A stretch of 24,153 bases of DNA. It comes from a virus. Position 1 is the stretch's first letter, and each line of letters starts with the position of its first letter. Positions 5,306 through 22,622 of this stretch are shown here, piece by piece. The position numbers were made by a program, and so were the translations under genes. Under the pieces are notes generated by a model. That model saw only the letters and a list, made by a program, of their open reading frames with translations, was not told the origin of the DNA and searched no databases. The DNA lies in the IMG/VR virus record IMGVR_UViG_3300023180_007114, positions 1 through 24,153 of that record. One strand, 5' to 3'.

Positions 5306-6540
5306 CAGCCCACCCCATCATGCTCAATCGTGAGGGAGAGCGGCACCCTGCGCCGCAGCATCCCTGGATAGTTGAGATCAAAATCTGCCTCGAGGAGACG
5401 CCCGATATAGCGCCCCCGCTCTGGCTGGATGGTGTAGAGGGTGCCATATCGTGAGTTGATGTAGGTGCTACCCTGCACAGCCATGGGGGCTGTGTGGCGC
5501 CTCGAGTCTCCCCATTCTCCTACATAGGTGAGACGCTGGCCCGGGCCAGTGTATCGGATAAATCGATCACCCCAATGTTGGTACAGGTCGCGGCTGTCTG
5601 CCTCTGCATCCAGATAAAATGAGATGCGGCTGCTGGTGTAGGTGGCCAGGCGATTGCTCACCATACCTCCACCCAGCAGGCGCCGCGCAGTGGCCACTGT
5701 GTCTGTGCTGAGCTGGTGGCGCTCCACAGGGCGGGTGGGCAGCAGCACCATGGCGCAGGGGTAGCTGGCTCGCAGTCTACTGTAGACGCTCGAGCCTCCC
5801 AGCGCAGTAGGGGCCTCAGAGCCTGTGAAGCCTAGCAGGTTGCGCAGCTTTGTGCTTGACCAGCTTAACGCTGTGACCGCGCTAGGGTAGCTCACCACTG
5901 CGTGCCCCTCCTCATCGATCAGCCACCTAATACTGTTGAGCCCAGCCAGCCCCATCTCTGTGGTGTCTATATGCGAGAGAGAGAGGGTTGAGTTGGTGGC
6001 ATCTGCATCTGCTGTGCTGCCTGATGCAGGATCGCGGGTGAGCACGCGCAGATCCTGATATTCCCCATCTACGGTCACAGTAAATGCCGCGCCCGCTGCC
6101 GGGGTGATCGTGATCGACCATGGCCCCAGCACCCTGCCCCTCACCCATGCGTTGGGCATAGTGGCCACCTCATTGGTGCCCACAGTAGCAGAGCTCACGG
6201 TGGCTGCGCCCACTCCGAGATAATCTGTGCCCGCAGCATAATCGACATCAAACGCAGTGCCAGAGTGCGTGATGGTGATCAGATCCTCATCACTGATCGC
6301 CACGCCCCACCCGCCGGCGGTGGGTGATCCGCCAGCTGTTGCATAGTATTCAATTGTATCAGTGAGGCTCTGTGTTGCTGCATAGCCATTCAGAAAATCA
6401 ATCATATCCTGATAGACGACATCAGCCATGGTGATTTTGATGAATGTGGTGCCCCGCCTATAGAGGTTTACCTCGCTAAGATCTCGCAGATCACATTCTG
6501 TGAGTAGGGCAAAATTAGGCGCGCTGTCTGGACTAGGCAT
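5305..6540 (-). CDS. Distal tail-like protein directly after the tape measure
   Basis: A 411-residue protein with an ATG that overlaps the tape-measure stop (TGATG), preceded by a strong GAGGAGGAG SD inside the end of the tape-measure gene. The N-terminus (NLYRRGTTFIKITMADVVYQ) and a long beta-rich middle suit a virion protein. A TKLRNLLGFTGSE segment near residues 225-240 resembles a motif I recall from other phage tail proteins in this position. The C-terminus (LEADFDLNYPGMLRRRVPLS) is basic. In siphophages the gene after the tape measure is usually the distal tail protein, which caps the tube and nucleates the tip. That assignment is inferred. Confidence 0.7.
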   Translation of the reverse strand: MPSPDSAPNFALLTECDLRDLSEVNLYRRGTTFIKITMADVVYQDMIDFLNGYAATQSLTDTIEYYATAGGSPTAGGWGVAISDEDLITITHSGTAFDVDYAAGTDYLGVGAATVSSATVGTNEVATMPNAWVRGRVLGPWSITITPAAGAAFTVTVDGEYQDLRVLTRDPASGSTADADATNSTLSLSHIDTTEMGLAGLNSIRWLIDEEGHAVVSYPSAVTALSWSSTKLRNLLGFTGSEAPTALGGSSVYSRLRASYPCAMVLLPTRPVERHQLSTDTVATARRLLGGGMVSNRLATYTSSRISFYLDAEADSRDLYQHWGDRFIRYTGPGQRLTYVGEWGDSRRHTAPMAVQGSTYINSRYGTLYTIQPERGRYIGRLLEADFDLNYPGMLRRRVPLSLTIEHDGVG

Positions 6541-8681
6541 CAGCTCCTCCTCAATCGCACAGCGCCTCTGCGCGGGCTGTTGATTGTCCTGACCACCCTA
6601 TCAGCAAATGCGCGCTCAGCGGCTGCCTGTGTGTCGTAGATCACAGCATTGCCCATGTTCACGTTGATGGTGATGGGTGCTCTATCCTGATCATCACCTC
6701 GAGCGCCTCTAGGGGCAGCCTGTGGAGCTCCAGAGGGTGAAGTACCAGAGCGTCTGCCAGCGCCACCACCACCAGAGCTCTCTCCTGGTGTGAGCGCATG
6801 GCCAACACTGCCAGCCACTGCAGCAGCTGTCCCAAACGCCAAAGCAGATTGGAAATAACCAGCAGCTGGGAGGCCCATTGCCAGAGCGATGAGCCCGCGG
6901 CCTGTGGCCATTAGGCTCTCTACTGTGGCTTGGATGGCCACTGCAGTGAGCGCCTCACCCACAGCAGCCTTCATACTCTCCCCCATGAATTTAGCAGTGA
7001 CTGCAGAGGTTAGGATGCTTTGGCTGAATTGCTCTGCTGCTTGGGTCAATGGGGTAAAATCGAACTCTTCTAGCTGGGCAAATGCTGCATTGAGATCATG
7101 CATGAGCTCCACATTTTGAACGCTCAGATCTCGCAGTTGCTCGAGGAGCTGCTCTCTCTCTGCTGCGCGCTGGCGCTCAATATCGAGCAGCTCACGCTGG
7201 CGCACTAAGGATGCTGTCTCTCTCTGTGTCTCTGTTTGAGCCAGCGCTTGAGCTGTGTTGTGGCGTAGCTCAATCAGCGCTATGCGCTGCTGCTCACCCT
7301 CAGTGTAGAGCCTTATCCTCGCCTCCTCGAGGCGCGCTAAATCCTGAAGCTCTGCCCGCTCCTGCGCCTCTCTCTGCGCTCGAGCTTGCTGCGCCATAGC
7401 GCGGCGCTTCTCCGCTGCTGCTCTCCTCAAAGCTCTGCGGCGCTGTATCGCGCTCTCAATGATCAGCGTCTCTGCGAGCTCCCGATCAGATGCGAATTGT
7501 TGCTGCTGTTGAGCACGCTGGGCCTCGAGCTCTGCGCGCCTCTCATTGTATTGGCGTGCAGTGATCGTCTGCAGCTCCAGCTGGCGAGAGAGCGCAGCTA
7601 CCTCTCCCTCAAATACTGTATTGATGCGCTGCAGCTGTGCCTGCTCTAGCGCCTTAACCTGTGAGATCCGCTGGTGCTGCTGTATCTGCAGCTGCCTGCT
7701 CTGAAACTGCAGAGTATTCATCCGCGCCTGGGCAGCCTCTGCCTCAGTCTGGATTTGCAGCGCACCTATGCTGCGCAGGGTGTTGGCATTTTCCTGTAAC
7801 AGCTTGGCCCTCTCACGCTCTGCTGCCTCGATTGCCGCGCGCCCCTGCGTCTCAAGCTGGCGCTCTACCTCATTGGTGAGAGCGCGCCTTGCTCGAGCTG
7901 CCTCTTGAATGAGCGGGATCAGCTCTGCCTCTACTCTAGACGTTCGCTCTATAGCTCGATTGTAGCGCACCTGCGCATCATGGCTGAGTTTACGCACCTC
8001 GAGATCTTCAAGCTGGGCGCGTCTAGCTGCTGTGAGTTGACGGTTGCCCTCTAGGCGTAGCCTGATGGTGGTACGCTGCGCCTCTGCCTCTGCCTGCGCA
8101 TGCTGCAGCGCTGCAGATGCTCTAGCCATTTCTCGCTGAGCTAACTCAATTCGCTTACCAATGGTGCCATTACCCTCTCTGAGGATTTGCACATATTCTG
8201 TCTGCATCTGCGCATTTGTGCTCAGCTGCATCAGGTTGGCATGCTCGGCAGCTGTTAGCTCAATATTTGCATCTGCGAGCTGCTCTAAAACGGTTGTAAA
8301 CTCAGCCGCGCCTACCCTGATGGCCTCTAGGCGCTCCTCTACATCATTGGTGCTATCAATGTATTTTTTGACCGCAAAAACCACCCCGGCAAAAGCGGCG
8401 CCAACAGCTGCAATTGGGCCTGCGAGCGCCATAAAACCAGCTCCCGCTGTGGCAGTTGCAGCGCCCATTTGAGAGATGCCAGAGGTGAGCGTGCCCACGC
8501 TGGTGGCAATCCCGCCTAGGCTCGCTGTGACTTTGTTTGAGCTGGCCTCTAGGGTAGAGCCCATAGCGCTAAACCCACCCGCGGCGCGCTCAGCGCCCTT
8601 GGATATGTTGTTTAGTGCCTTTTCAGCTTTACCTGCCCCGTCTAGCTCAACCCTGATCTCAACTGCGCCCGCTGCTGCCAT
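6540..8681 (-). CDS. Tape measure protein
   Basis: A 713-residue protein. Residues ~130-540 are almost entirely charged helical sequence rich in Gln, Arg, Glu and Ala (RELLDIERQRAAEREQLLEQ), a long coiled coil. There are two hydrophobic Ala/Gly-rich stretches, near residues 60-108 (GPIAAVGAAFAGVVFAV) and 575-630, as expected of the tape-measure segments thought to enter the host envelope. The C-terminus has the ITINVNMGNAVIYDTQ pattern common to tape measures. It follows the tail chaperone gene and overlaps its frameshifted T part by 23 bp. At about 1.5 angstrom per residue it predicts a tail of roughly 105 nm. No muralytic motif is visible. Confidence 0.92.
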   Translation of the reverse strand: MAAAGAVEIRVELDGAGKAEKALNNISKGAERAAGGFSAMGSTLEASSNKVTASLGGIATSVGTLTSGISQMGAATATAGAGFMALAGPIAAVGAAFAGVVFAVKKYIDSTNDVEERLEAIRVGAAEFTTVLEQLADANIELTAAEHANLMQLSTNAQMQTEYVQILREGNGTIGKRIELAQREMARASAALQHAQAEAEAQRTTIRLRLEGNRQLTAARRAQLEDLEVRKLSHDAQVRYNRAIERTSRVEAELIPLIQEAARARRALTNEVERQLETQGRAAIEAAERERAKLLQENANTLRSIGALQIQTEAEAAQARMNTLQFQSRQLQIQQHQRISQVKALEQAQLQRINTVFEGEVAALSRQLELQTITARQYNERRAELEAQRAQQQQQFASDRELAETLIIESAIQRRRALRRAAAEKRRAMAQQARAQREAQERAELQDLARLEEARIRLYTEGEQQRIALIELRHNTAQALAQTETQRETASLVRQRELLDIERQRAAEREQLLEQLRDLSVQNVELMHDLNAAFAQLEEFDFTPLTQAAEQFSQSILTSAVTAKFMGESMKAAVGEALTAVAIQATVESLMATGRGLIALAMGLPAAGYFQSALAFGTAAAVAGSVGHALTPGESSGGGGAGRRSGTSPSGAPQAAPRGARGDDQDRAPITINVNMGNAVIYDTQAAAERAFADRVVRTINSPRRGAVRLRRS

Positions 8682-9602
8682 GGCTAGCCTCCTCTGCTGC
8701 TCTTTGTCTCATCCTAGCCTGCGCTAGGTGTGTTTGCTGGCTGAGCTCTGAAAATAGGTCGAGCACTGCGCAGCTGGGAGCTGTAAACAGATCAGAGAGA
8801 GAGCAGAGCCCAGCCTGCTGCCGCTGATAGGCCTGCAACAGCGGCGCCAGTCTGTTGCCATTGGCCACAGGGCATGAGCGCACCCTCTGCTCTCCCCAGC
8901 TACCATCACAATCTGGCGCAACTCGATATGCCATCACATAGCGCCCCTGATCATCAGAGCGCACCCATGGCAGACCGTCTAGGAATGGCCCCCCACAGTT
9001 GCCCCGGCGCGCACGCAGCCCAGGGGTCGTCTGGCATTGTTCACAGCTCCATGCCCGGGAGCCAGCGTGCTGCAGCCAGACGCTGGCCCCCGCTGCTATT
9101 TTCCCTCTGGGGGCAGGGTGCTTAGCGTCTGGATATGCGCCACTAGCTCAGAGCACAGCAGTTGCCTGTGGTGATCTGGCCGGATGCGATCAATCAGCTC
9201 GAGCGGATCACCATCATGGCCCACCACCCGCACCAGCCCAGCTCGCATCATCTCACGATAGACGCGCGCCAGATAACCCTCATAAGAGCCCAGCGCCTCG
9301 CGCTCATCCTCTGGCAGTTTGTGCTGCCAGCGGGCCCGCTCTGTGGGGTCATCTGGCTGGCCCAGCCAGAGCTGGCGCCCCAGCTCGCTGCGCTTGTACA
9401 CCCCAGCTGCCACCTCTGCCGCCTCACGCTGTGGTGGGGTGAGCGCCCGCACCACAAATCGAGTAGCACCCTCAGTCTGCAGCAGACTCTCATCACGGGT
9501 GCGCAGGTAGCGCGCCTTGTCATCATCACTGCCCTGCACAGCAGGATCAATGGTGGAGACAACCTCAATTTCCTGCGCGGCATCAGTGGCAAAATGAAAC
9601 AT
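8659..9602 (-). CDS. Tail assembly chaperone, -1 frameshift product (gpGT-like)
   Basis: Ribosomes slipping back one base on GGGAAAA (9099-9105) read ATA GCA GCG instead of the TAG stop and enter an open frame that continues to a TGA at 8659, giving a fusion of about 314 residues (168 G + 146 T). The T frame has no ATG, GTG or TTG between the G stop and a GTG at 8964, so most of it can only be made by frameshifting. The T part contains clustered cysteines: C-x2-C-x12-C (SCEQCQTTPGLRARRGNC), then DCDGSW and RSCPVANGN, a possible metal-binding knuckle. Its 3' end overlaps the tape measure start by 23 bp. In lambda the T domain binds the tape measure; the same role is inferred here. Confidence 0.87.
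9057..9105 (-). promoter_or_regulatory. Programmed -1 ribosomal frameshift signal
   Basis: On the minus strand: slippery heptamer G GGA AAA (9099-9105) in the correct phase, zero-frame stop TAG directly after it, a 7-nt spacer (9092-9098), then stem arm GGGGGCCAGCGT (9080-9091), an 11-nt loop (9069-9079) and arm ACGCTGGCTCCC (9057-9068). The arms pair over 12 bp with a single G-U. The heptamer differs from the lambda G/GT site (GGGAAAG) only in the last base. Confidence 0.9.
9096..9602 (-). CDS. Tail assembly chaperone, short form (gpG-like)
   Basis: A 168-residue protein. The ATG at 9602 (MFHFATDAAQEIEVV) is chosen because it lies one base after the major tail protein stop (TAAGATG) with a GGGGA SD; a longer frame starting at 9737 lies inside the tail protein gene and is unlikely. 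The sequence is charged and helical (LTPPQREAAEVAAGVYKRSE), typical of tail assembly chaperones, which bind the tape measure and recruit tail tube subunits during assembly and are absent from the virion. Its place between major tail protein and tape measure is diagnostic. The last codons GGA AAA TAG form a frameshift site, so a fraction of ribosomes make the longer G-T form. Confidence 0.88.
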   Translation of the reverse strand: MFHFATDAAQEIEVVSTIDPAVQGSDDDKARYLRTRDESLLQTEGATRFVVRALTPPQREAAEVAAGVYKRSELGRQLWLGQPDDPTERARWQHKLPEDEREALGSYEGYLARVYREMMRAGLVRVVGHDGDPLELIDRIRPDHHRQLLCSELVAHIQTLSTLPPEGK

Positions 9603-9603
9603 C

Positions 9604-10905
9604 TTAAATCCCCAGTGCGAGCCTAAACGGGCTGTTGGCTGCATCAGTGCTGCCACCGTCACCACCAAATCTAGAGGCAGAGTAGGTGAGGCGCTGCTGC
9701 ACAATCTCACCATCAATCTGCCGGATCTGCGGATCAACCGTGAGATATGCGCCTGGCAGATTAAGGGCCATGCCCTGCCCTGCGCCCACAGGCCCAGAGC
9801 CGATCAGCAGGGAGCGGATCACACCATCTCTGAAATCGTTGGCGATCACAGTGTTGGGGCTGTCTACCGTGATGTTGCACTCCACCACCACATCAGACAC
9901 CTCCATATCACTCATCGCAATGAGGGAGCTGGAGCTCCCCACAGGGGTGAGGGTGTTGGTGATGGTGAGATCAAACTCGCTCACTGAGAGGTCAATCTTG
10001 TCGAGCTCATCACCCGTGGGCCCAGCCACAGTGGTGCGGCTGGTGCTCGCAGTGGAAGAGAGGCGCAGATAACAGCTGCGGAAATGAGGCGTGCTGCCAG
10101 TGAGGGTGGTGGGCTCGATAGGCCCGCTGGCAGAGCCATGATCATCATAGATATGCGCAGCCTGAAAAACGAAATCACCCATCAGGCGCCCGCCATCAAT
10201 GGTGATATTGAGGCTCTCAAGCTTGCATCCAAACGCATAGCTGCGCACCCCAACACCATCCACCCTAAATGCAACAGAGCTGTTGACGCTGCCGCTGTTG
10301 TTGCCTCGAGCAACAAACCAGGTCTCCAGCAGGCGCACCACATCAGGAGCGGTAGTATTGAGCGCCCTGCTGAGCTGGGGGCTGTACCCAATATCGCCAG
10401 CCCCGCCTGCATTGACGCTAGTGATGTGCGCATACTCTGCGCGCCCATCTAGCTCGATACCCATCAGCCCACCTAGCTTGAATGAAGCGGCAGCGGTAGG
10501 GGTGAAGCGATTATCTGAGACAGCAGCTGTCACTGTGTCAGAGGCAGCGCCCGGGATAGTGCGTGAGAATCCAGCACCCAGCAGGAGGCCCAGAGCAGTG
10601 GCGTCATAATTGGCTGCGCTGCTGCCCAGGGTGGTGAAGTCACAGCGCACAGAGAGGGTGCCAGTGCGCCGCTGCTGGCGGGTGCCTCCCACGCTGGTGG
10701 TGTCGAGCTCTGGCGGCAGCCCGTGCGGGCCATCCCTCGCCTCAGTGCGCTCTGACACAGGGGGCTCACCCGGTACAACGATAGGATCGCGCTCGCAGGG
10801 GATGCTGATAAACGTGAGGCCAGAGGGGCTGGGCACACCATCAGCGCCCAATGAGCCAAATGAGCTCTCTCCTACGATTGATAGAGATCTGTGAGTGACA
10901 GCCAT
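9604..10905 (-). CDS. Major tail (tube) protein
   Basis: A 433-residue protein. The ATG directly follows the upstream TAA and has a strong AGGAGG SD 8 nt upstream, consistent with high expression. The sequence is beta-rich and low in charge, with an N-terminal segment FISIPCERDPIVVPGEP and tube-protein-like strands (LTGSTPHFRSCYLRLSST; MEVSDVVVECNITVDS; LIGSGPVGAGQGMALNLPG). It lies between the tail terminator and the tail chaperone, the standard place of the tube protein that forms stacked hexameric rings. It is long for this family, so it probably carries an extra surface domain, perhaps at residues ~120-220. No enzymatic role is expected. Confidence 0.82.
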   Translation of the reverse strand: MAVTHRSLSIVGESSFGSLGADGVPSPSGLTFISIPCERDPIVVPGEPPVSERTEARDGPHGLPPELDTTSVGGTRQQRRTGTLSVRCDFTTLGSSAANYDATALGLLLGAGFSRTIPGAASDTVTAAVSDNRFTPTAAASFKLGGLMGIELDGRAEYAHITSVNAGGAGDIGYSPQLSRALNTTAPDVVRLLETWFVARGNNSGSVNSSVAFRVDGVGVRSYAFGCKLESLNITIDGGRLMGDFVFQAAHIYDDHGSASGPIEPTTLTGSTPHFRSCYLRLSSTASTSRTTVAGPTGDELDKIDLSVSEFDLTITNTLTPVGSSSSLIAMSDMEVSDVVVECNITVDSPNTVIANDFRDGVIRSLLIGSGPVGAGQGMALNLPGAYLTVDPQIRQIDGEIVQQRLTYSASRFGGDGGSTDAANSPFRLALGI

Positions 10906-11891: not shown

Positions 11892-12871
11892 CAGTGCTGC
11901 ATCCCACGCCAGCGAGGGAATTGTTGAGCGATCACCCGCTCTCCCTCTGTTGGCTCGATTGATGGGAGGGAGAATACCCCACGCACATCAGTGGGGCTGC
12001 CCCCTGCCCTGCGCACATCGATCTCATTGGCATCAATGAGGCCATCATCATCAGTATCCAGCACCAACTGCTTTAGAGCGCGCTCGAGCAGATCAGCTGC
12101 GCGCTCTCCAGCCCGATCAGCTAGATCAGATTGAGCGCTCATTTCATAGATCAGCTGGGCTGCCAGGTACCTGTGAGCGGGCGCAAAAACGTGAGGGTTG
12201 AAAATATCATCCTCTGTCTGCTCTGGCCCAATATGCTCTCTGATGCGCAGCGCCAGCTCCTCGAGTGCAGCTGCCACCTGTGGCTCCAGATCTTGCTGCC
12301 TGCGCGGGATCATATCTCCCATCTGCGGCATATGCGCAATCAGGGAGCTCGAGCTCAGCCCGGTGGCAAATGGGTGGCGCACAATCTGCACTGTGCCCTG
12401 TGCACCCACTGGCTCATTGGTAGGGGTGGCAGTGGCTGTGTAGCTGATACGCCACGCGAGCACACCTCTGGTGCCAGTGTGGGCTGCTGGGATTGTATAG
12501 GTGTAGCCTGCCCAGCGGAGCTCCGCTGATGCAGTGAGTGACAGCCCACGGGGGAGCACATCAGCCAGAATCGCAGTGGTGCCCTCGAGGCGATCAACTG
12601 TGACCGCAAACACACCATCACCCGCAGTGATGAGAAACGCTCTGCCAGTGGTGGGGCCAATGAGATATTGGCTGTCATCACCCGCAGTGAGGGTGAGGGT
12701 GCGCCTATCCCCACCCAGAGCTGTCACAGTGCGCGCAGCCCTCACTGCGCTCATGCTGGTGGGTGCCTGCACTGTGCCCGCTGGGGTGGTGTAGCCAATG
12801 CTGGGTGCAGCCTGCAGAGGGCTGGGGGCCTCCCAGTAGAGGGCATAGTCTAGATTCTGCGTAGCTTTCAT
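11891..12871 (-). CDS. Head-tail connector/adaptor with an EF-hand-type loop
   Basis: A 326-residue protein; its ATG overlaps the MuF gene stop as ATGA. Residues 1-185 are beta-rich and Thr/Ala-rich, like an extra domain. Residues ~190-300 form a helical part (QVAAALEELALRIREHIG; AHRYLAAQLIYEMSAQS; LLERALKQLVLDTD) similar in size and layout to gp6-type connector proteins that form a ring below the portal. Residues 272-283, DTDDDGLIDANE, match a canonical 12-residue EF-hand calcium loop (acidic at 1, 3, 5, 9 and 12, Gly at 6, Ile at 8). Ring function is inferred from position between MuF and neck genes. The beta domain may be decorative or glycan-binding. Confidence 0.68.
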   Translation of the reverse strand: MKATQNLDYALYWEAPSPLQAAPSIGYTTPAGTVQAPTSMSAVRAARTVTALGGDRRTLTLTAGDDSQYLIGPTTGRAFLITAGDGVFAVTVDRLEGTTAILADVLPRGLSLTASAELRWAGYTYTIPAAHTGTRGVLAWRISYTATATPTNEPVGAQGTVQIVRHPFATGLSSSSLIAHMPQMGDMIPRRQQDLEPQVAAALEELALRIREHIGPEQTEDDIFNPHVFAPAHRYLAAQLIYEMSAQSDLADRAGERAADLLERALKQLVLDTDDDGLIDANEIDVRRAGGSPTDVRGVFSLPSIEPTEGERVIAQQFPRWRGMQH

Positions 12872-13791
12872 CTCTCGGCCCTCGCTGCCTGATTGGCTCT
12901 GCGCACATCTGCATTGGTGCCCCTCGAGAGATCAGCGCTCTCAATCAGCTCCTCTGAGACCGGCGCCCAGGTGTGCCTGCAGTTGTACCCACCACCCCGC
13001 ACTAAGGGGGGCTCAATTTGATAATTGCGCAGATCTTGCACCTGAGCTTTGGTGAACACCCTACCCACCAGCTGCCTGCAAAATGGGCGGGTGATCCCAT
13101 CTATCGGCCCTGTGTAGAGATAGTGATCAATCCCCACGCTCTCTGCTGCCACCGCAGTGAGCTCACGCCCAAATGAGGTGATGCGCGTGCGAGCTTCTGT
13201 GATCTGCCTGCCCTCTGCAGAGCGCAGTGCGGCATCCAAAGAGCCGATCACCTCTGCAGGATCTGCAGTGAATTGTGCGCCAGCTAACGCATCACGCACT
13301 GCCCGCTGCACATCTGGGATCACTACATCATCAATGATCCCAGAGATGGTGTCATCAGCCAGCGCCTGCCCCACTCCCTCAATCGCATTGACATCAAAGC
13401 CATCAGAGGAGGCCAGTAGGAGCTGCTCAACATTTGCGAGGGTATCTCGCTCTGCCGCTGTGATGTCTAGCACCAGATCACCTAGGCCAACATCTAAAAG
13501 CCAGCGCTCAAGATCAGTGCGATCTAGATTGCGCAGCGTTTGCAGATTGCCGCTATCAGCTGCCCCCTGCACTGCATCACTGATTGCGCTCTTTGCAGCT
13601 CGCAGAGAGCGCCTCAATTTTTTGTCGAGGCTAGCCTCTAGGCGCAGTTGCGCCCGGGTAGCTCTCAATATGTCCCGCTGTCTGGCTGTATTGGCCTCTC
13701 TGATCTGAGAGGCGAGATCAGCCAGCGCGCGCTCATCACCATTCTCTGCTAGATGGTGGTGATGGCGCTGTGAGCACAGCGGGCAACTCAC
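12868..13791 (-). CDS. MuF-like minor head protein
   Basis: A 307-residue protein. GTG at 13789-13791 is the only reasonable start, because an in-frame stop lies ten bases upstream; the SD is weak. The C-terminal domain has MuF-family hallmarks: TRPFCRQLVGRVFTKAQV near residues 232-250 and GGGYNCRHTWAPV near 264-277. MuF/SPP1 gp7-type proteins bind the portal inside the procapsid and are packaged with DNA. Unusually, the N-terminus begins MSCPLCSQRHHHHLAENGD, a CxxC followed by four histidines, which could bind zinc. Between the two ends is helical sequence. I see no toxin or nuclease domain. Confidence 0.85.
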   Translation of the reverse strand: MSCPLCSQRHHHHLAENGDERALADLASQIREANTARQRDILRATRAQLRLEASLDKKLRRSLRAAKSAISDAVQGAADSGNLQTLRNLDRTDLERWLLDVGLGDLVLDITAAERDTLANVEQLLLASSDGFDVNAIEGVGQALADDTISGIIDDVVIPDVQRAVRDALAGAQFTADPAEVIGSLDAALRSAEGRQITEARTRITSFGRELTAVAAESVGIDHYLYTGPIDGITRPFCRQLVGRVFTKAQVQDLRNYQIEPPLVRGGGYNCRHTWAPVSEELIESADLSRGTNADVRRANQAARAER

Positions 13792-14796: not shown

Positions 14797-15180
14797 TTAT
14801 GCTCCCTGCTCAGAGGCGCCATCAAAGATCACAAAGACCTCTTGAGCGTCTGCAGTGGTGGTGTGATTGATGTTGGGGATCCAAGATGCAACGCTGTACT
14901 TCCCAGCGCCTGCTGCGAAGTCGATCACCTTGCCCGCGGCGCTGACCATGAGAAGGCCCTGCTCGGAGAGGTCTGCCCCGGCGATGGCCTTAGTGAGCCC
15001 GCGCACGCAAACCTCGACCACCTCACCCGCTGCTGCTGGGCGCTGGGCAATGCCGCAGGCGATCTCACCCTCAACAGTGCAGGGAGTGACCTTGCCAGCG
15101 GCGTCAAACTTGACCGCCTGTAGCGCAGTGATGGTGGCAGCCGCCACGCATGAGATGATGGTGCTGTTGTTATCGCTCAT
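14797..15180 (-). CDS. Capsid decoration protein (DUF2190-like)
   Basis: A 127-residue small beta protein, rich in Ala and Gly, with an ATG overlapping the protease stop as TGATG and a GGAGG SD. The pattern ALQAVKFDAAGKVTPCT, GIAQRPAAAGEVVEVCVRG and MVSAAGKVIDFAAGA is typical of DUF2190/gpD-type head decoration proteins, which bind at the capsid surface and stabilise the expanded shell. It lies directly before the major capsid gene, as usual for this class. Confidence 0.82.
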   Translation of the reverse strand: MSDNNSTIISCVAAATITALQAVKFDAAGKVTPCTVEGEIACGIAQRPAAAGEVVEVCVRGLTKAIAGADLSEQGLLMVSAAGKVIDFAAGAGKYSVASWIPNINHTTTADAQEVFVIFDGASEQGA

Positions 15181-15803
15181 CAGAATCCTCCAAACGCGCT
15201 CTTGATGAGAGCGGGCTCAGTGCGTGCGAGGCGCTCATATGCCTCAGAGAAAGTGATGCTCTCAGAGCTGGCGAGCTCCTGAGCGCGCTGGGCGATCGTC
15301 GCCTGGGAGATCTCCTCCCCGCTGGCGCCATGGCCAATCTCAGAGAGAGAGACTGCGTGCTCTGCGGCGCGCCGCGAAAACATCTCCCAGAAAAGGCTAT
15401 CACCCCGCTCTGCGAGCGCCCAGGCGTGCTCTGCCACATCACGCTCTGCGGGGCTGATGCGTCCGCTTCGGAGCAATGCACCCACCTCTGCCTCACGGCG
15501 CGTGGTGGCCTCTTTCTCTGCGAGCGCCTGCACCTGCTCAGTGAGAGCTTGGATCTGGGCAGCCTGTGCGGTGTTGGCCTGCGTGAGTTGCTCACTCATG
15601 CGCTTATATTCGCCCATCTGCTCTTTCTCCTCAGCATCAGAGCTGGCCTCTGCCATCTCCTCTGCATCATCCTCATCCTCTGCCATCTCCTCGCGGCTGG
15701 CCTTTAGACGGGCCTCGAGCTCACGCACCAGCGCATCCTTTTGCTTCAGGAGGGCCTTAGCCTGCTCGAGGTCTGCGATAGCCTCAATCTCTGCTACATC
15801 CAT
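15180..15803 (-). CDS. Candidate internally initiated scaffold protein
   Basis: Inside the protease-scaffold gene an in-frame ATG at 15803 (MDVAEIEAIADLEQAKALLK) lies 9 nt after an AGAGGAG SD-like sequence; a second ATG at 15812 is too close to that SD. Initiation here would give a 207-residue protein of coiled coil plus C-terminal helices, without the protease. This matches the arrangement of lambda Nu3 inside C, where the scaffold is made separately in excess. Expression from this site is inferred. Confidence 0.45.
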   Translation of the reverse strand: MDVAEIEAIADLEQAKALLKQKDALVRELEARLKASREEMAEDEDDAEEMAEASSDAEEKEQMGEYKRMSEQLTQANTAQAAQIQALTEQVQALAEKEATTRREAEVGALLRSGRISPAERDVAEHAWALAERGDSLFWEMFSRRAAEHAVSLSEIGHGASGEEISQATIAQRAQELASSESITFSEAYERLARTEPALIKSAFGGF

Positions 15804-17165
15804 CAGATTCATCTCCTCTGATAGGGTGACCCGCTCGAGTGCAGACGCTGCCTGCTGTGGGCGGGGGGTGAGGGTGACTGCCAACAGCTGAGCAGAGCCA
15901 GTGCGTTCACCGCTCTCTCTGGCGTAGACGTCACCTAGGAAAAACTCGGGGGAGCTCCAGAGGGTGCCACCAGCAGCAGCCACCACCTCAGCTCCCCGTT
16001 GATTGTAGACGGGCACAGCAATCAATTGGCGCCCATCTTCTGAGAGCCGCAGCTCTGCAATCTCACCCAGTGCGCCACTCTCCTCAGGGGTGCTTTGTCC
16101 CCCGGGGGCGCTCTGATGATTCCAATCAATGATCACAGGGTCTGCGTTTTTGCGAGCATCAAAGACCCGCTTGATCTCTGCTAGGTGCTCTGGCGTCACA
16201 TCACAGATTAGATCACCTGATAGGCGCGAGGAGACCTTGCCAGCGCTCAGGGTGACAAATGGGCGGCCCATGGTTTGGCCATCATCCACCACCACCACCA
16301 GCCCATCTACCTCTGCCAGTGCTATCTCATTGAAGGCTGCTCGATAGGTGGGGCGCTCTGCGAGCCTCTGATCTGCTGCATCCATTTGTCTCACCAGCTT
16401 TCTGGCCCATGAATATCCAGCATCCCCACCCCAGCCCTGCCAGGCCTGCCACCCTTTGCCCTGCTCTGGCCAGCTGGAGCCCTCTTTGTCCACCTCATGC
16501 CGGGTGAAATACGCCAGCATCCTGCGGGCCGTCTCGGGGCTGATGGTTTTGCCGTTGGATAGATCACGCGCACGCGCGAGGCCCACAGCTGTCATGCCAC
16601 GCTGCGAGGGGGGCTTCTCTGCCCTCACCTCGAGCGCTCGAGCTGCTGCCTTGCGCACCCCATCAGGGGGAGAGAAATCAATGTGCGCATAGCGCTCTGC
16701 CAGCTGCTCTGTGGCCTGCTCTTTGGCTTTGTAGCTGGGGTGTTCTTTAGGCAGCAGATCATCATCTGTGGTGTAGGATTTTTTGCGCTCGCCTGTGCCC
16801 ACTAAGCGGAGGAAGGCCTTCACCCTGCCCAGCGCCCACTGATTGCGGCTGGTGACGCTGGGCCTGTGGCTCACAGAGAAAGCGCCTGCGCCCCTGCGAT
16901 AGACAGCCCGCAGCATCCCCAGATCAACCCTGCGCCCGGGGGCAGAGTATCGCTCATTGTGCTCATCTCTGAGCCCCTCGAGCGCAGCCTCTGCAGCATC
17001 AGAGATTTTGATGCCGCCGCGGGTAGATGATGCAGAGCCCGGGCGATTGCGGGTAGAGCCAGTGCGTTGATCGCGCGCGGGCGCTGGCGTCTTAGGATCA
17101 TCCTCTGCCAACCGGCGCCGCAGTGTGGATGAGATCCTGCGCCTCAGTTTGCGCTTAGCGCTCAT
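15180..17165 (-). CDS. Mu gpI-like capsid maturation protease fused to scaffold, with N-terminal accessory domain
   Basis: A 661-residue multidomain protein; start overlaps the preceding gene as ATGA. Residues 1-50 are strongly basic (KRKLRRRISSTLRRRLAE). Residues ~75-270 hold an accessory domain with YRRGAGAFSVSHRPSVTSRN, TTDDDLLPKEHPSY, SPETARRMLAYFTRHEVDK and WGGDAGYSWARKLVRQ, a combination I recall from other phage head proteins, of unknown function. Residues ~290-440 resemble Mu gpI-type proteases: DWNHQSAPGG with His near 350 and LWSSPEFFLG with Ser near 403-404 are the candidate catalytic region. Residues ~450-580 form an acidic coiled coil and the C-terminus is helical, as in scaffolds. 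It would cleave itself and assembly proteins inside the procapsid. Confidence 0.82.
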   Translation of the reverse strand: MSAKRKLRRRISSTLRRRLAEDDPKTPAPARDQRTGSTRNRPGSASSTRGGIKISDAAEAALEGLRDEHNERYSAPGRRVDLGMLRAVYRRGAGAFSVSHRPSVTSRNQWALGRVKAFLRLVGTGERKKSYTTDDDLLPKEHPSYKAKEQATEQLAERYAHIDFSPPDGVRKAAARALEVRAEKPPSQRGMTAVGLARARDLSNGKTISPETARRMLAYFTRHEVDKEGSSWPEQGKGWQAWQGWGGDAGYSWARKLVRQMDAADQRLAERPTYRAAFNEIALAEVDGLVVVVDDGQTMGRPFVTLSAGKVSSRLSGDLICDVTPEHLAEIKRVFDARKNADPVIIDWNHQSAPGGQSTPEESGALGEIAELRLSEDGRQLIAVPVYNQRGAEVVAAAGGTLWSSPEFFLGDVYARESGERTGSAQLLAVTLTPRPQQAASALERVTLSEEMNLMDVAEIEAIADLEQAKALLKQKDALVRELEARLKASREEMAEDEDDAEEMAEASSDAEEKEQMGEYKRMSEQLTQANTAQAAQIQALTEQVQALAEKEATTRREAEVGALLRSGRISPAERDVAEHAWALAERGDSLFWEMFSRRAAEHAVSLSEIGHGASGEEISQATIAQRAQELASSESITFSEAYERLARTEPALIKSAFGGF

Positions 17166-18926: not shown

Positions 18927-20294
18927 ATGATCAAACTGAACCCACTACAGCTCGAGCTCCTCGAGGCCATCACCCGCCAGCAAACCATGGTGGCAGTGCG
19001 TGCTGGCTGGGGCTCAGGTAAAACCTCAGCGCTGGTGTTTGCCCTCGCATGGGTGAGCAATATGCGCCCGGGCACCAGCAGCCTCCTTATCACCGATACA
19101 GCGCAGCGCTACCGCACAGTGCTACAGCCAGAGATCGAGAAATGGCTAGGGCCTCTAGGCTGGAGCTACTCTCAAACGCAGGGCATCTGGAGCGATCCCG
19201 CCACGGGCTCATCTGTGTGGTGTCGCAGCTATTTCCGCCCGGGCACCAGAGACGCCAGCCACAATCCCCTCGAGGGCATCAATGCCACTAGCGGGGTGGC
19301 GCTCATTGATGAGGCCCAAACAATGACGCAAGAGGTGGCCTTTAAAGCGCTGGGGCGCCTGCGTAGCGGGCCATCTCCAATGCTGGTGATGTGCGGCCTG
19401 CCAGTGATGGGCGCCTGGTGGGTTGATCTCGCAGAGGATGCTGGCTGCACCCCTCTGCTACACACCTCATATAGCAACAGAGAGAATCTCTCTGAGGAGT
19501 GGTTTAGAGCCACAGAACAGCTGCCGCCAGAGGAGCGAGCAGCAATGATCCTAAACCAACCTGCACCACCCAGCGGGCTGGTTTACTCGGAGTTTTCAGA
19601 GGCAGAGAATATTGTGCAGGGCTGGCAATATCGGGAGGATATGACAGCCCGCATTGCAGTGGATTGGGGATTTAGAAAGCCCAGCGTGCTGATCATCGCG
19701 CATGATGAGGAGCTAGACGCAGACATCATCTGCGCTGAGCTCAATCCCAAAGAGGTGAGCCTGCAGGAGCTCTGCCGCATGATCCTCTCGGTTGCGTGGC
19801 CGCGCGCCCACAGAGCCAGCGCGCCTGGCCCCCGCATTTGGCTGGATGCTGGCTGTGGCGATAAGGCTGGCGCCGCGCGCAGCGACCGTACCGCACAGAG
19901 CACATTTAAGGAGCTGCGCTACCCTCCCCCGCATGGGCTGGGCCTGAAGCTGCGCTGGTCAACTTCCCCCGTGAAAACTGACATCATGAATGGAGTGCAG
20001 CGCCTCAAGAGAGCAATATGGGAGCGCAAATACCGCATCACGCAAGAGGTTTGGGATACAGGGCGCAATGCCCCGGGCAACAGCCTGCGCAAGGCAATTG
20101 CAGGATATGCATGGGATAAGCGCAGAGAGCAACCTGTGAAATCAGGCATTGAGGATCCTCTTGACGCCCTGCGCTATGACCTGATCTGCTGGCGCTGGGA
20201 TGATGGGCAGGCGCTCGAGCGCAGGGCTGCTGGAGCTCCAGCGCGCCCGTCAACGCCACAGATAAAGCCATGGGAGAAGCGGGGCAGATTTTGA
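18927..20294 (+). CDS. Terminase large subunit
   Basis: A 455-residue DNA packaging motor subunit. The ATPase domain shows Walker A at residues 27-33 (GWGSGKT), Walker B with catalytic Glu at 124-129 (VALIDE) and a coupling-type segment LVMCGLP at 153-159. The RNase H-like nuclease domain has candidate metal-binding acids at D246 (AVDWGF), D307 (IWLDAGCGD) and D410/D413 (EDPLDALRYD). It cuts concatemeric DNA and pumps it through the portal. The ATG at 18927 has no SD and no alternative start lies upstream in frame, so the message may be leaderless or have a very short leader. No small subunit gene is visible nearby. The gene is on the opposite strand to the head genes. Confidence 0.94.
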   Translation: MIKLNPLQLELLEAITRQQTMVAVRAGWGSGKTSALVFALAWVSNMRPGTSSLLITDTAQRYRTVLQPEIEKWLGPLGWSYSQTQGIWSDPATGSSVWCRSYFRPGTRDASHNPLEGINATSGVALIDEAQTMTQEVAFKALGRLRSGPSPMLVMCGLPVMGAWWVDLAEDAGCTPLLHTSYSNRENLSEEWFRATEQLPPEERAAMILNQPAPPSGLVYSEFSEAENIVQGWQYREDMTARIAVDWGFRKPSVLIIAHDEELDADIICAELNPKEVSLQELCRMILSVAWPRAHRASAPGPRIWLDAGCGDKAGAARSDRTAQSTFKELRYPPPHGLGLKLRWSTSPVKTDIMNGVQRLKRAIWERKYRITQEVWDTGRNAPGNSLRKAIAGYAWDKRREQPVKSGIEDPLDALRYDLICWRWDDGQALERRAAGAPARPSTPQIKPWEKRGRF

Positions 20295-21532
20295 GCGCCA
20301 CAGTCATCAATGCAGACTCAATAGATCACCTCAAAACGCTGCCAGACTCTAGCATTGATGCAGTGGTCACTGATCCCCCATATGGGCTGGGCAATTGCTC
20401 CCCCCGGGCAGTGAGCGCAGCGCTCACAGCGTGGCTGGCGGGTGAAGAGTATCAGCCCAGCGGGGCAGGCTTTATGGGTAAAAGCTGGGACGCATTTGTG
20501 CCCGGGCCAGAGCTCTGGCGTGAGGTATATCGAGTGCTCAAGCCAGGGGGCCATGCTGTGATCTTCGCTGGCTCACGCACTGTAGACCTGATGGGGGTCG
20601 CAGTGAGGCTGGCTGGGTTTGAGGTGAGAGATATGCTTCACTGGCTTTATGGCAGTGGCTTCCCAAAATCTCATGATGTGAGCAAGGCGCTCGATAAGCG
20701 GGCAGGGGCTGAGCGTGAGGTGATTGGTGCAGGTGTCAGTGGGTCCACTCGCCTTATTTACTCTGGGGGTATGGGTGCCTTTGATATTACAGCCCCCGCC
20801 TCCCCTCTAGCGCAGCAGTGGTCTGGCTGGGGCACAGCCCTCAAGCCAGCGCATGAGCCGATCCTGCTCTGCCGCAAGCCACTGGCTGGCTCTGTGGCAG
20901 AGAATGTTGAGCAGTGGGGGGTGGGGGGGCTCAACATTGATGGGTGTAGGATTGAGACTGATGAATATATTTTTACAACTCCTAGAACCCAGCAATCTCA
21001 TATTTATGGGAAGTATGCTCAGCAAGATCCAATGCAAAGCACAGGTCAAGAAATAGGCCGCTGGCCAGCCAATATCCTCCTAGATCCTAGCGCAGGCGCA
21101 GCTCTTGATCTGCAGGCAGGTTTTGAGGCCAGCCGCTTCTTTTATGAGGGTAAGGCCAGCAGAGAGGAGCGTGAGGCAGGGCTGGTGGGGCTCGAGGCCC
21201 GCGCAGTGGGTGATGGCAGAGGGACGCCGATAGATAACCCTTATCAACGGGGTGAGACTAAGCGGCAGAATGTGCACCCCACCGTAAAGCCGATCGCAGT
21301 GATGCGCTGGCTCTGCAAGCTGATCACCCCGCCGGGGGGCGTGATCCTTGACCCGTTCTGCGGCAGCGGCACCACTGGCTGCGCTGCCACCCAGCTAGGG
21401 TTTGAGTTTGTGGGTATCGAGCGCGAGCCAGAGTATGCGGAGATTGCTCGAGCCAGGATCGCGCATTGGGGCTGCCTACCACCAGAGGAGCTGGGGGCGC
21501 GTAAGCCAGCTAAGCAGCCTACGCTGTTCTAA
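20270..21532 (+). CDS. DNA methyltransferase, beta class (N6-adenine or N4-cytosine)
   Basis: A 420-residue SAM-dependent DNA methyltransferase. The catalytic motif IV DPPY is at residues 35-38 and the SAM-binding motif I DPFCGSGTTG at 361-370, so the order is that of the beta class (Pfam N6_N4_Mtase). Other family marks are GFMGKSWD, NVEQWGVGGLNIDGCRI, GRWPANILLD and HPTVKPIAVMRWL. The ATG used overlaps the terminase by 25 bp; an in-frame TTG forming a TTGA overlap with the terminase stop would shorten it by seven residues. No restriction enzyme is adjacent, so it is a solitary methyltransferase that may protect phage DNA from host restriction. Residues ~228-264 are encoded by AT-rich DNA unlike the rest and may be part of the target recognition domain. 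Confidence 0.9.
   Translation: MGEAGQILSATVINADSIDHLKTLPDSSIDAVVTDPPYGLGNCSPRAVSAALTAWLAGEEYQPSGAGFMGKSWDAFVPGPELWREVYRVLKPGGHAVIFAGSRTVDLMGVAVRLAGFEVRDMLHWLYGSGFPKSHDVSKALDKRAGAEREVIGAGVSGSTRLIYSGGMGAFDITAPASPLAQQWSGWGTALKPAHEPILLCRKPLAGSVAENVEQWGVGGLNIDGCRIETDEYIFTTPRTQQSHIYGKYAQQDPMQSTGQEIGRWPANILLDPSAGAALDLQAGFEASRFFYEGKASREEREAGLVGLEARAVGDGRGTPIDNPYQRGETKRQNVHPTVKPIAVMRWLCKLITPPGGVILDPFCGSGTTGCAATQLGFEFVGIEREPEYAEIARARIAHWGCLPPEELGARKPAKQPTLF
20903..20938 (+). other. Inverted repeat with G-rich loop inside the methyltransferase gene
   Basis: AATGTTGAGC (20903-20912) and GCTCAACATT (20929-20938) form a perfect 10-bp inverted repeat. The 16-nt loop is AGT followed by G-runs of six and six, with one more G in the stem (G6-T-G7 in total). 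It encodes the conserved NVEQWGVGGLNI segment. It could form a hairpin or be a slippage site. Confidence 0.5.
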
Positions 21533-21996
21533 ACTACGCAGTGCACCCTCACCCCGTGCTCTGAGAGATACCTCAGCCCCTCATCATCCCTGCCTGCGAG
21601 CTCGCACCACACCACAGCCACCCCGGCGTGATGAGCCAGCTTGGCACACTGCAGGCAGGGCGCCCCGCTCACAATCAGCCAGGCACCATTCACTGCGGCG
21701 CCGCGTCGGGCAGCATTGGCGATTGCATTGGCCTCAGCATGATGGCAGCCCACCTCACAGCGCTGCCCTGATGGGATGGCGAGCTGATCACGCAGGCAGC
21801 CATCAGGCCCGCAGCTGATCGCTGGCCCTCGAGGTGGGCCATTCCAGCCCTCAGCGATGATGGTGTTGGTTTGTGCGTCTACCAGCAGCGCACCATACTG
21901 CGCCCGGTCACAGGGTGAGAGCTGCGCCAGCGTGCGGCAGTAGCTGAGGCGCGCAGCTAGGTGTCGCGGGTTCAATGGTTGCGCTCTCTGCGCCAT
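21529..21996 (-). CDS. dCMP deaminase
   Basis: A 155-residue zinc-dependent deaminase of the dCMP/cytidine family. The zinc and catalytic residues are visible: HAE at 86-88 (H86 ligand, E88 proton shuttle) in CHHAEANAIANAARRG, and PC-x2-C at 113-117 (C114, C117). The N-terminus has SPCDRAQYGALLVD and a Cys-rich insert (ISCGPDGCLRDQ) usual for phage and bacterial dCMP deaminases. It converts dCMP to dUMP, the substrate of the ThyX encoded just upstream. Start ATG at 21996 overlaps thyX by 25 bp. The stop overlaps the convergent methyltransferase stop by 4 bp, leaving no room for a terminator between them. Confidence 0.92.
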   Translation of the reverse strand: MAQRAQPLNPRHLAARLSYCRTLAQLSPCDRAQYGALLVDAQTNTIIAEGWNGPPRGPAISCGPDGCLRDQLAIPSGQRCEVGCHHAEANAIANAARRGAAVNGAWLIVSGAPCLQCAKLAHHAGVAVVWCELAGRDDEGLRYLSEHGVRVHCVV

Positions 21997-22622
21997 GCCC
22001 CCAGCGTCACAGGCCAGAGGTCAAACACAATGCGCTCAACTTGCTGCGCGTACGCTCTGATCTCCTGCTGGGCATCTGGTGCTAGGCGCAGGTCTAGGAA
22101 ATGAAGTAGCGCTTGAAGAGAGGCTGTCCAGATCACCTCACTCTGTACAGCCTGTGGCAGTATTGCCCGCGCCTGCTCTCGACAAACGCCAGCATCTATC
22201 AGCTTCTGATAGGCCGCGGCTGCTGCCTCGCAGCCCTCCACATATGCTTTCTCTGCCTCTAGGGTGAGATCAGCTGGGAGCTGCCCCCCGCTGCCTTGTT
22301 TGGTACCAGGCGCAGCCTCACGCCAGATCTCTGGCTTCCAGACGCCTGCGCGCTCCGCATCAAACTGCACATAGCGATAGCTGATCTCATTCCAGCTGCA
22401 GCCTATCTGATGTTTGCCCCACTGCCTCAAAACAAAGATGGGCGCCACTACATGAAATGACGCATAGCAATGGCGCAGCGGGCTGGTGTGCTGGTGCCGG
22501 ATCAAGTAGTCGATCAAGCTCTGCTCTGACGGCCCAATCTCTGTGACGGTGCGGCCCAGTGAAACGCGAGCAACATTGGCCACCGTTACATCAGAGCCCA
22601 TTTTGTCGATTAATTTTATCAT
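21972..22622 (-). CDS. thyX: Flavin-dependent thymidylate synthase
   Basis: A 216-residue ThyX, which methylates dUMP to dTMP using methylenetetrahydrofolate, FAD and NADPH. Visible marks are HQHTSPLRH at 43-51, PIFVLRQWGKHQIGCSWNEISYRY at 61-84 in pieces (RQW at 66-68, SWNEIS at 76-81, R83), and the conserved C-terminal VIWTASLQALLHFLDLR with the substrate-binding HFLDLR arginine. The classical RHR-x7-S motif appears in the variant KHQ form with one extra residue. Translation begins at ATG 22622 after a weak GGAT SD. Together with dCMP deaminase it would raise thymidylate during infection, independent of host ThyA. Confidence 0.93.
   Translation of the reverse strand: MIKLIDKMGSDVTVANVARVSLGRTVTEIGPSEQSLIDYLIRHQHTSPLRHCYASFHVVAPIFVLRQWGKHQIGCSWNEISYRYVQFDAERAGVWKPEIWREAAPGTKQGSGGQLPADLTLEAEKAYVEGCEAAAAAYQKLIDAGVCREQARAILPQAVQSEVIWTASLQALLHFLDLRLAPDAQQEIRAYAQQVERIVFDLWPVTLGAWRRERNH

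What the first reader, a model, noticed from the sequence alone, without database searches (positions are those of the whole stretch)
9057..9105. Complete -1 frameshift cassette producing a tail chaperone G-T fusion
The last sense codons of the chaperone, GGA AAA before TAG, form the slippery heptamer GGGAAAA in the right phase. A 7-nt spacer and a 12-bp stem with an 11-nt loop follow. The -1 frame is open through 146 codons and lacks a usual start codon over its first third. Heptamer, stop, spacer, stem and gene position all agree, and a conventional annotation would split or truncate this gene.
Basis: partly seen in the sequence, partly recalled or inferred. Interest (0 to 1): 0.8.

Follow-up and report, generated by a model that had tools for sequence, protein, structure and literature searches.

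The report
Frameshift making phage tail-chaperone fusion
An uncultured tailed phage makes two versions of what is probably its tail-building helper protein, by having some ribosomes slip back one base at the end of the gene; this is a strongly conserved example, in a phage group without close isolates, of a trick long known from phage lambda.

Summary
On the minus strand a 168-codon gene (9602-9096) ends in GAG GGA AAA TAG, giving the phased -1 heptamer GGGAAAA (9105-9099). A 12-13 bp stem with an 11-nt loop starts 6 nt downstream. The -1 frame stays open for 146 codons (to 8659) and has no ATG, GTG or TTG in its first 45. The window is an IMG/VR virus fragment.

Collection scans gave about 120 distinct relatives at this junction. 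GGGAAAA is invariant in all of them, although GGA is only 10% of glycine codons in these genes. The zero-frame stop is always 0 or 2 codons further on. In relatives where TAG is lost from its usual place, a new TAG appears two codons later. The stem is stronger than synonymous recoding predicts (mean z -2.65, controls -0.9 to +0.3) and shows many compensatory base changes. The downstream protein is conserved from its first residue after the shift.

I conclude this is programmed -1 ribosomal frameshifting producing a G-T-type tail assembly chaperone fusion: a known kind of system in an uncultured phage group. The frameshift is close to certain on sequence evidence. The chaperone role rests on gene order, two weak tape-measure matches and a weak fold match. 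No protein product was tested.

The parts
9604..10905 (-). 433-aa gene just upstream, in the position of the major tail (tube) protein
   Evidence: ORF; same position and size (431-457 codons) in most of nine relatives checked; no family match, so the name is inferred from gene order
9096..9602 (-). G: putative tail assembly chaperone, 168 aa, zero-frame product ending Glu-Gly-Lys then TAG
   Evidence: about 160 relatives in IMG/VR; top fold matches in the viral library are annotated tail assembly chaperones, weak
9099..9105 (-). slippery heptamer G_GGA_AAA
   Evidence: invariant in all relatives read
9096..9098 (-). zero-frame TAG stop directly 3' of the heptamer
   Evidence: stop at 0 or 6 nt in every relative
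9056..9092 (-). stimulatory stem-loop, 12-13 bp, 11-nt loop, 6 nt after the heptamer
   Evidence: codon-shuffle test; covariation
8659..9099 (-). T: -1 frame extension, 146 codons, no usual start in the first 45; fusion product 314 aa
   Evidence: coding-type substitution pattern in codons 2-45
6540..8681 (-). putative tape measure protein, 713 aa, start overlaps the T end by about 22 nt
   Evidence: phrog_4211 tape measure, E 2e-4; L022 homologue phrog_1538 tape measure, E 2e-6; a long gene in the same place in relatives

Best explanation
This is a programmed -1 ribosomal frameshift site in the tail module of an uncultured tailed phage. Most ribosomes read G and stop at TAG, giving a 168-aa protein. 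A minority pause at the stem-loop with tRNA-Gly and tRNA-Lys on GGA AAA. Both tRNAs re-pair one base back on GGG AAA, and translation continues with AUA GCA into the T frame, giving a 314-aa G-T fusion. By analogy with lambda gpG/gpGT, abundant G would coat the tape measure protein and rare GT would recruit the tail tube protein. The elements and their selection are shown by sequence comparison. The slip itself, its frequency and the chaperone role are inferred.
For: Phased heptamer, adjacent stop and open -1 frame. GGGAAAA invariant in three searches, one of which used only G-internal patterns. In 66 distinct G genes the slip codons are always GGA (10% of glycine codons elsewhere in G) and AAA (53%), and the codon before always ends in G even when it is Ala (11/11, 24% expected) or Ser (5/5, 11% expected). 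In most relatives the T frame is closed 2-3 codons upstream with no start codon between. Stem: mean z -2.65 in 54 sequences against codon shuffles, controls -0.87 to +0.33, and -2.94 in 31 further sequences. Compensatory changes: 8 pairs/19 cells in A5 (0 of 500 shuffles) and 8 pairs/66 cells in A6 (cells 0 of 500 shuffles), far above slid registers. T is conserved from its first residue, Ile-Ala. Gene order: tube-like gene, G, T, tape measure.
Against: No proteomic or ribosome-profiling data. G and T have no sequence match to named families. The fold match of G to known chaperones is weak (best E 7e-3, TM about 0.3), there is no PDB match, and the T model is poor (pLDDT 53). Some relatives carry ATG at the start of the T frame. 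Sequences in the covariation sets are related and were grouped by stem register, which inflates the percentage paired.
Confidence: 0.93

Rival explanations
1. T is a separate protein started by termination-coupled reinitiation at a non-standard AUA/AUC/AUU codon overlapping the G stop (AUAG), with no frameshift.
For: The first T codon is always AUN, and a clade has ATGA or ATA ATG there.
Against: Gives no reason for invariant synonymous bases in GGGAAA or a covarying stem 5-8 nt later. When the codon is ATC/ATT the stop lies two codons downstream, not overlapping, yet heptamer and stem remain. AUA is a very rare start codon (own knowledge).
Confidence: 0.04
2. Both routes operate: frameshift fusion everywhere, plus free T from ATG in the minority ATGA clade.
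For: ATG at or next to the first T codon in L072, L079, L133, L134, L136, L204, L215 and L224, with heptamer kept and stem strong in L204, L215 and L224.
Against: Does not apply to the window, which has ATA; ATG there may only reflect drift of the stop from TAG to TGA.
Confidence: 0.2
3. Two ordinary genes, with T starting at GTG 8964; heptamer and stem are chance.
For: A gene caller would report a 101-aa ORF there.
Against: T-frame codons 2-45, upstream of that GTG, are conserved and change mostly at third positions; residues 1, 2 and 6-9 are invariant in A2; a start at that place is absent in many relatives.
Confidence: 0.01
4. The inverted repeat is a transcription terminator between two genes, or the shift arises by transcriptional slippage on the A-run.
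For: A strong GC-rich stem lies just after a stop codon.
Against: No U-run follows the stem and T and the tape measure gene continue through it; the A-run is only four bases, too short for known transcriptional slippage (own knowledge).
Confidence: 0.01

Closest known systems
Phage lambda gpG/gpGT programmed -1 frameshift (Levin, Hendrix and Casjens 1993; Xu, Hendrix and Duda 2004, 2013, 2014; reviewed in PMC5009743)
   Same: [quoted passage not shown] -1 shift giving a G-T fusion from a frame without its own start; same place between tail tube and tape measure genes.
   Different: Heptamer is GGGAAAA, not GGGAAAG as in lambda (own knowledge; PMC5009743 names G_GGA_AAG as highly shift-prone in E. 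coli); the stop lies at 0 or 6 nt, whereas annotated tail-chaperone sites average 26-36 nt to the stop (PMC10885494); a strong conserved stem follows; T has conserved cysteines and no sequence similarity to known families was found.
Tail assembly chaperone of Arthrobacter phage Molivia (BFVD A0A286S2B7 and the longer form A0A286S2C9)
   Same: Best and third-best fold matches of the G model; the phage has a short and a long form.
   Different: E 7e-3 and 1.9e-2, TM about 0.35, 16-17% identity: suggestive only.
dnaX-type bacterial -1 frameshift (A_AAA_AAG with upstream Shine-Dalgarno and downstream stem)
   Same: Heptamer, downstream stem, nearby zero-frame stop.
   Different: No conserved upstream Shine-Dalgarno signal here (mean z -0.13 over 95 sequences).

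Membership tests
Programmed -1 ribosomal frameshift site (bacterial/phage) | X_XXY_YYZ heptamer in zero-frame phase in the overlap of the two frames | tested here: met
   G_GGA_AAA at 9105-9099, invariant in about 120 distinct junctions
Programmed -1 ribosomal frameshift site (bacterial/phage) | Downstream stem or pseudoknot 5-9 nt away under selection | tested here: met
   6 nt in the window, mostly 5-8 nt in relatives; codon-shuffle z and covariation; no support for a conserved pseudoknot
Programmed -1 ribosomal frameshift site (bacterial/phage) | -1 frame encodes a conserved protein reachable only by the shift | tested here: met
   Start-less first 45 codons conserved; frame closed 2-3 codons upstream in most relatives; a minority has ATG at the junction
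Programmed -1 ribosomal frameshift site (bacterial/phage) | Measured fusion product | not testable with these tools
   needs proteomics, ribosome profiling or a reporter
[quoted passage not shown]
   A long gene (mostly 640-790 aa where complete) follows T, with tape-measure profile matches in window and L022; the tube gene has no family match and is inferred from place and size
Phage tail assembly chaperone pair G/GT | Sequence homology to known chaperone families | tested here: inconclusive
   no Pfam or PHROG match; PMC5009743 notes low sequence similarity among these ORFs between phages, so absence is not decisive
Phage tail assembly chaperone pair G/GT | Fold similarity to known chaperones | tested here: inconclusive
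   viral-library top hit and several others are annotated tail assembly chaperones, but best E 7e-3 and no PDB hit
Phage tail assembly chaperone pair G/GT | G and GT absent from virions; required at a set ratio for tail assembly | not testable with these tools
   experimental

The most novel reading that the evidence does not exclude
The stop codon directly 3' of the heptamer is part of the signal. Slow termination at UAG in the A site would prolong the pause with tRNA-Lys on AAA, so the slip competes with release factor 1 and the G:GT ratio is tuned by release-factor activity. The stop is at 0 or 6 nt in every relative, and in all 6 distinct relatives with ATC/ATT the stop is supplied two codons later by a YTA leucine codon, which is only about 11% of leucine codons at that place in the others.
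Probability: 0.15. Interest if true: 0.5.

Novelty: new member of a known kind. Interest (0 to 1): 0.3.

Why it matters
It gives an annotation fix for an uncultured phage group that is frequent in IMG/VR but was found neither in the cultured-phage collection nor in the GTDB genome scan: G would be annotated alone and T cut to about 101 aa or missed. It adds about 120 natural variants of a single frameshift signal with fixed heptamer, drifting stem and covarying pairs, a good set for studying which parts of a -1 signal evolution holds fixed. The stop-adjacent layout makes the role of termination in the G:GT ratio testable.

Tried and rejected
Conserved pseudoknot: loop-to-downstream pairing is barely above shuffles (6.6 against 6.0 nt) and no single pairing recurs. 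Upstream Shine-Dalgarno stimulator: not above synonymous expectation. Sequence homology of G and T to Pfam, PHROGs, PDB and cultured phages: none convincing. Host through prokaryote genomes: no relative of T in genome contigs. Fold of T: model too poor to search. TAG as a preferred stop for its own sake: T begins Ile-Ala, and AUA-GCN forces TAG, so the excess of TAG needs no further cause; the retained stop in the ATC/ATT variants is the part not explained that way.

Full report
What is there. The window is a 24,153-base virus record of IMG/VR with head genes (portal, scaffold, major head protein) and tail genes on the minus strand. Gene G runs 9602-9096 and ends CCA GAG GGA AAA TAG. The heptamer GGGAAAA sits in the phase needed for a -1 slip. 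The -1 frame entered at base 9099 is open for 146 codons; it has no ATG, GTG or TTG in the first 45 and closes upstream at 9150. A 13-nt inverted repeat with one non-Watson-Crick position and an 11-nt loop follows at 6 nt, folding at -34.7 kcal/mol, z -5.1.

Relatives. Searches with T, with G and with a divergent T alignment gave relatives down to about 45% protein identity, 120 distinct junction sequences in all. The heptamer is GGGAAAA in every one. The G-alignment search used patterns inside G away from the junction, so the invariance is not a product of the search. In 66 distinct G genes GGA makes up 10% of other glycine codons and AAA 53% of other lysine codons, yet the last two codons are always GGA AAA, and the preceding codon always ends in G even when it is Ala (11/11) or Ser (5/5). 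That is selection on nucleotides, not on protein.

Stem. Against randomised synonymous codons of the T frame, the 45 nt after the slip codon are more stable by a mean z of -2.65 in 54 sequences (51 below -1). Seven later windows of T lie between -0.33 and +0.33, and six windows of G between -0.14 and -0.87. In 31 further sequences the mean is -2.94. The 5' arm mostly starts 5-8 nt after the heptamer. The 3' arm register differs between subgroups by 0-3 nt, so pairs were counted within the two largest registers: A5 (34 sequences) 87% of cells paired, 8 pairs with changes on both sides, 19 such cells against 4.4 in shuffles; A6 (26 sequences) 93%, 8 pairs, 66 cells against 24.9; slid registers score far lower. 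RNAalifold finds the same helix in both sets. Caveat: sequences are related and were sorted by register, so the paired percentage is inflated; the compensatory changes and the codon-shuffle test do not depend on that alone.

Stop codon. The zero-frame stop is directly after the heptamer in most relatives (mostly TAG, a few TGA, one TAA) and two codons later in those whose first T codon is ATC or ATT. In all 6 distinct ATC/ATT junctions of the first two sets the stop is supplied by a leucine codon YTA followed by G; among ATA relatives with leucine there YTA is 6 of 56. So a stop within 6 nt appears to be maintained. By comparison, PRFect reports mean slip-to-stop distances of 26 nt (SEA-PHAGES) and 36 nt (Xu phages) for annotated tail-chaperone sites (PMC10885494). 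Whether termination takes part in the slip is not shown.

Coding status of T. Codons 2-45, before any usual start codon in the window, change mainly at third positions (window to L009: 10, 8 and 22 differences at positions 1, 2 and 3). Residues Ile1, Ala2 and Ser6 to Leu9 are invariant in A2, as are cysteines 19, 22, 35, 76 and 110. A minority of relatives have ATG at or next to the first T codon (L072, L079, L133, L134, L136, L204, L215, L224). They keep the heptamer, and L204, L215 and L224 have some of the strongest stems (z -5 to -6), while L072 is weak (-1.5). There T might also be made separately.

Function. The next gene downstream is mostly 640-790 aa where complete and overlaps or abuts T (L008 is an exception at 316 aa). 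It matches tape measure profiles in the window (phrog_4211, 2e-4) and in L022 (phrog_1538, 2e-6). The gene upstream is a 431-457 aa protein in most of nine relatives checked, in the tube-protein position. G and T match no named family and no PDB chain. The AlphaFold2 model of G (pLDDT 84) has annotated tail assembly chaperones among its best viral matches, led by Arthrobacter phage Molivia (E 7e-3), and none in the PDB. That is weak, but agrees with the position. The lambda mechanism, with G and the G part of GT binding the tape measure and T binding the tube protein, is described in PMC5009743 and is assumed here by analogy.

Verdict. A genuine, strongly selected -1 frameshift cassette of the known phage tail-chaperone kind, in a phage group with no T relative in the cultured-phage collection or in the prokaryote genome scan. 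Its own peculiarities are the fixed GGGAAAA (last base always A), the stop at 0-6 nt, and a T domain with conserved cysteines.

Noticed in passing
L072, L079, L133, L134, L136, L204, L215 (T codon 1), L224 (T codon 2): ATG codons at the junction (ATGA or ATA ATG in place of ATAG), with heptamer retained: a possible dual route to T in some relatives.
   Followed up: partly
L022, L032, L050, L077, L085, L161: ATC/ATT in place of ATA removes the adjacent stop, and a TAG two codons later appears through a YTA leucine codon in all six.
   Followed up: yes
8662-9099 (T protein): T has invariant cysteines including a CxxC pair (C19, C22, C35, C76, C110), suggesting a possible metal-binding or disulfide-bonded domain; the predicted model is too poor to tell.
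   Followed up: no
15180-17165 and 12868-13791: Both genes have weak matches to head maturation protease profiles, in the 661-aa protein alongside a separate domain of unknown function (phrog_2859): possible fused or duplicated protease arrangement.
   Followed up: no
18927-21532 (+) and 21972-22622 (-): A terminase-like gene (weak match) and a DNA methyltransferase lie on the plus strand, opposite to the portal and tail genes, and a thymidylate synthase gene lies beyond on the minus strand.
   Followed up: no
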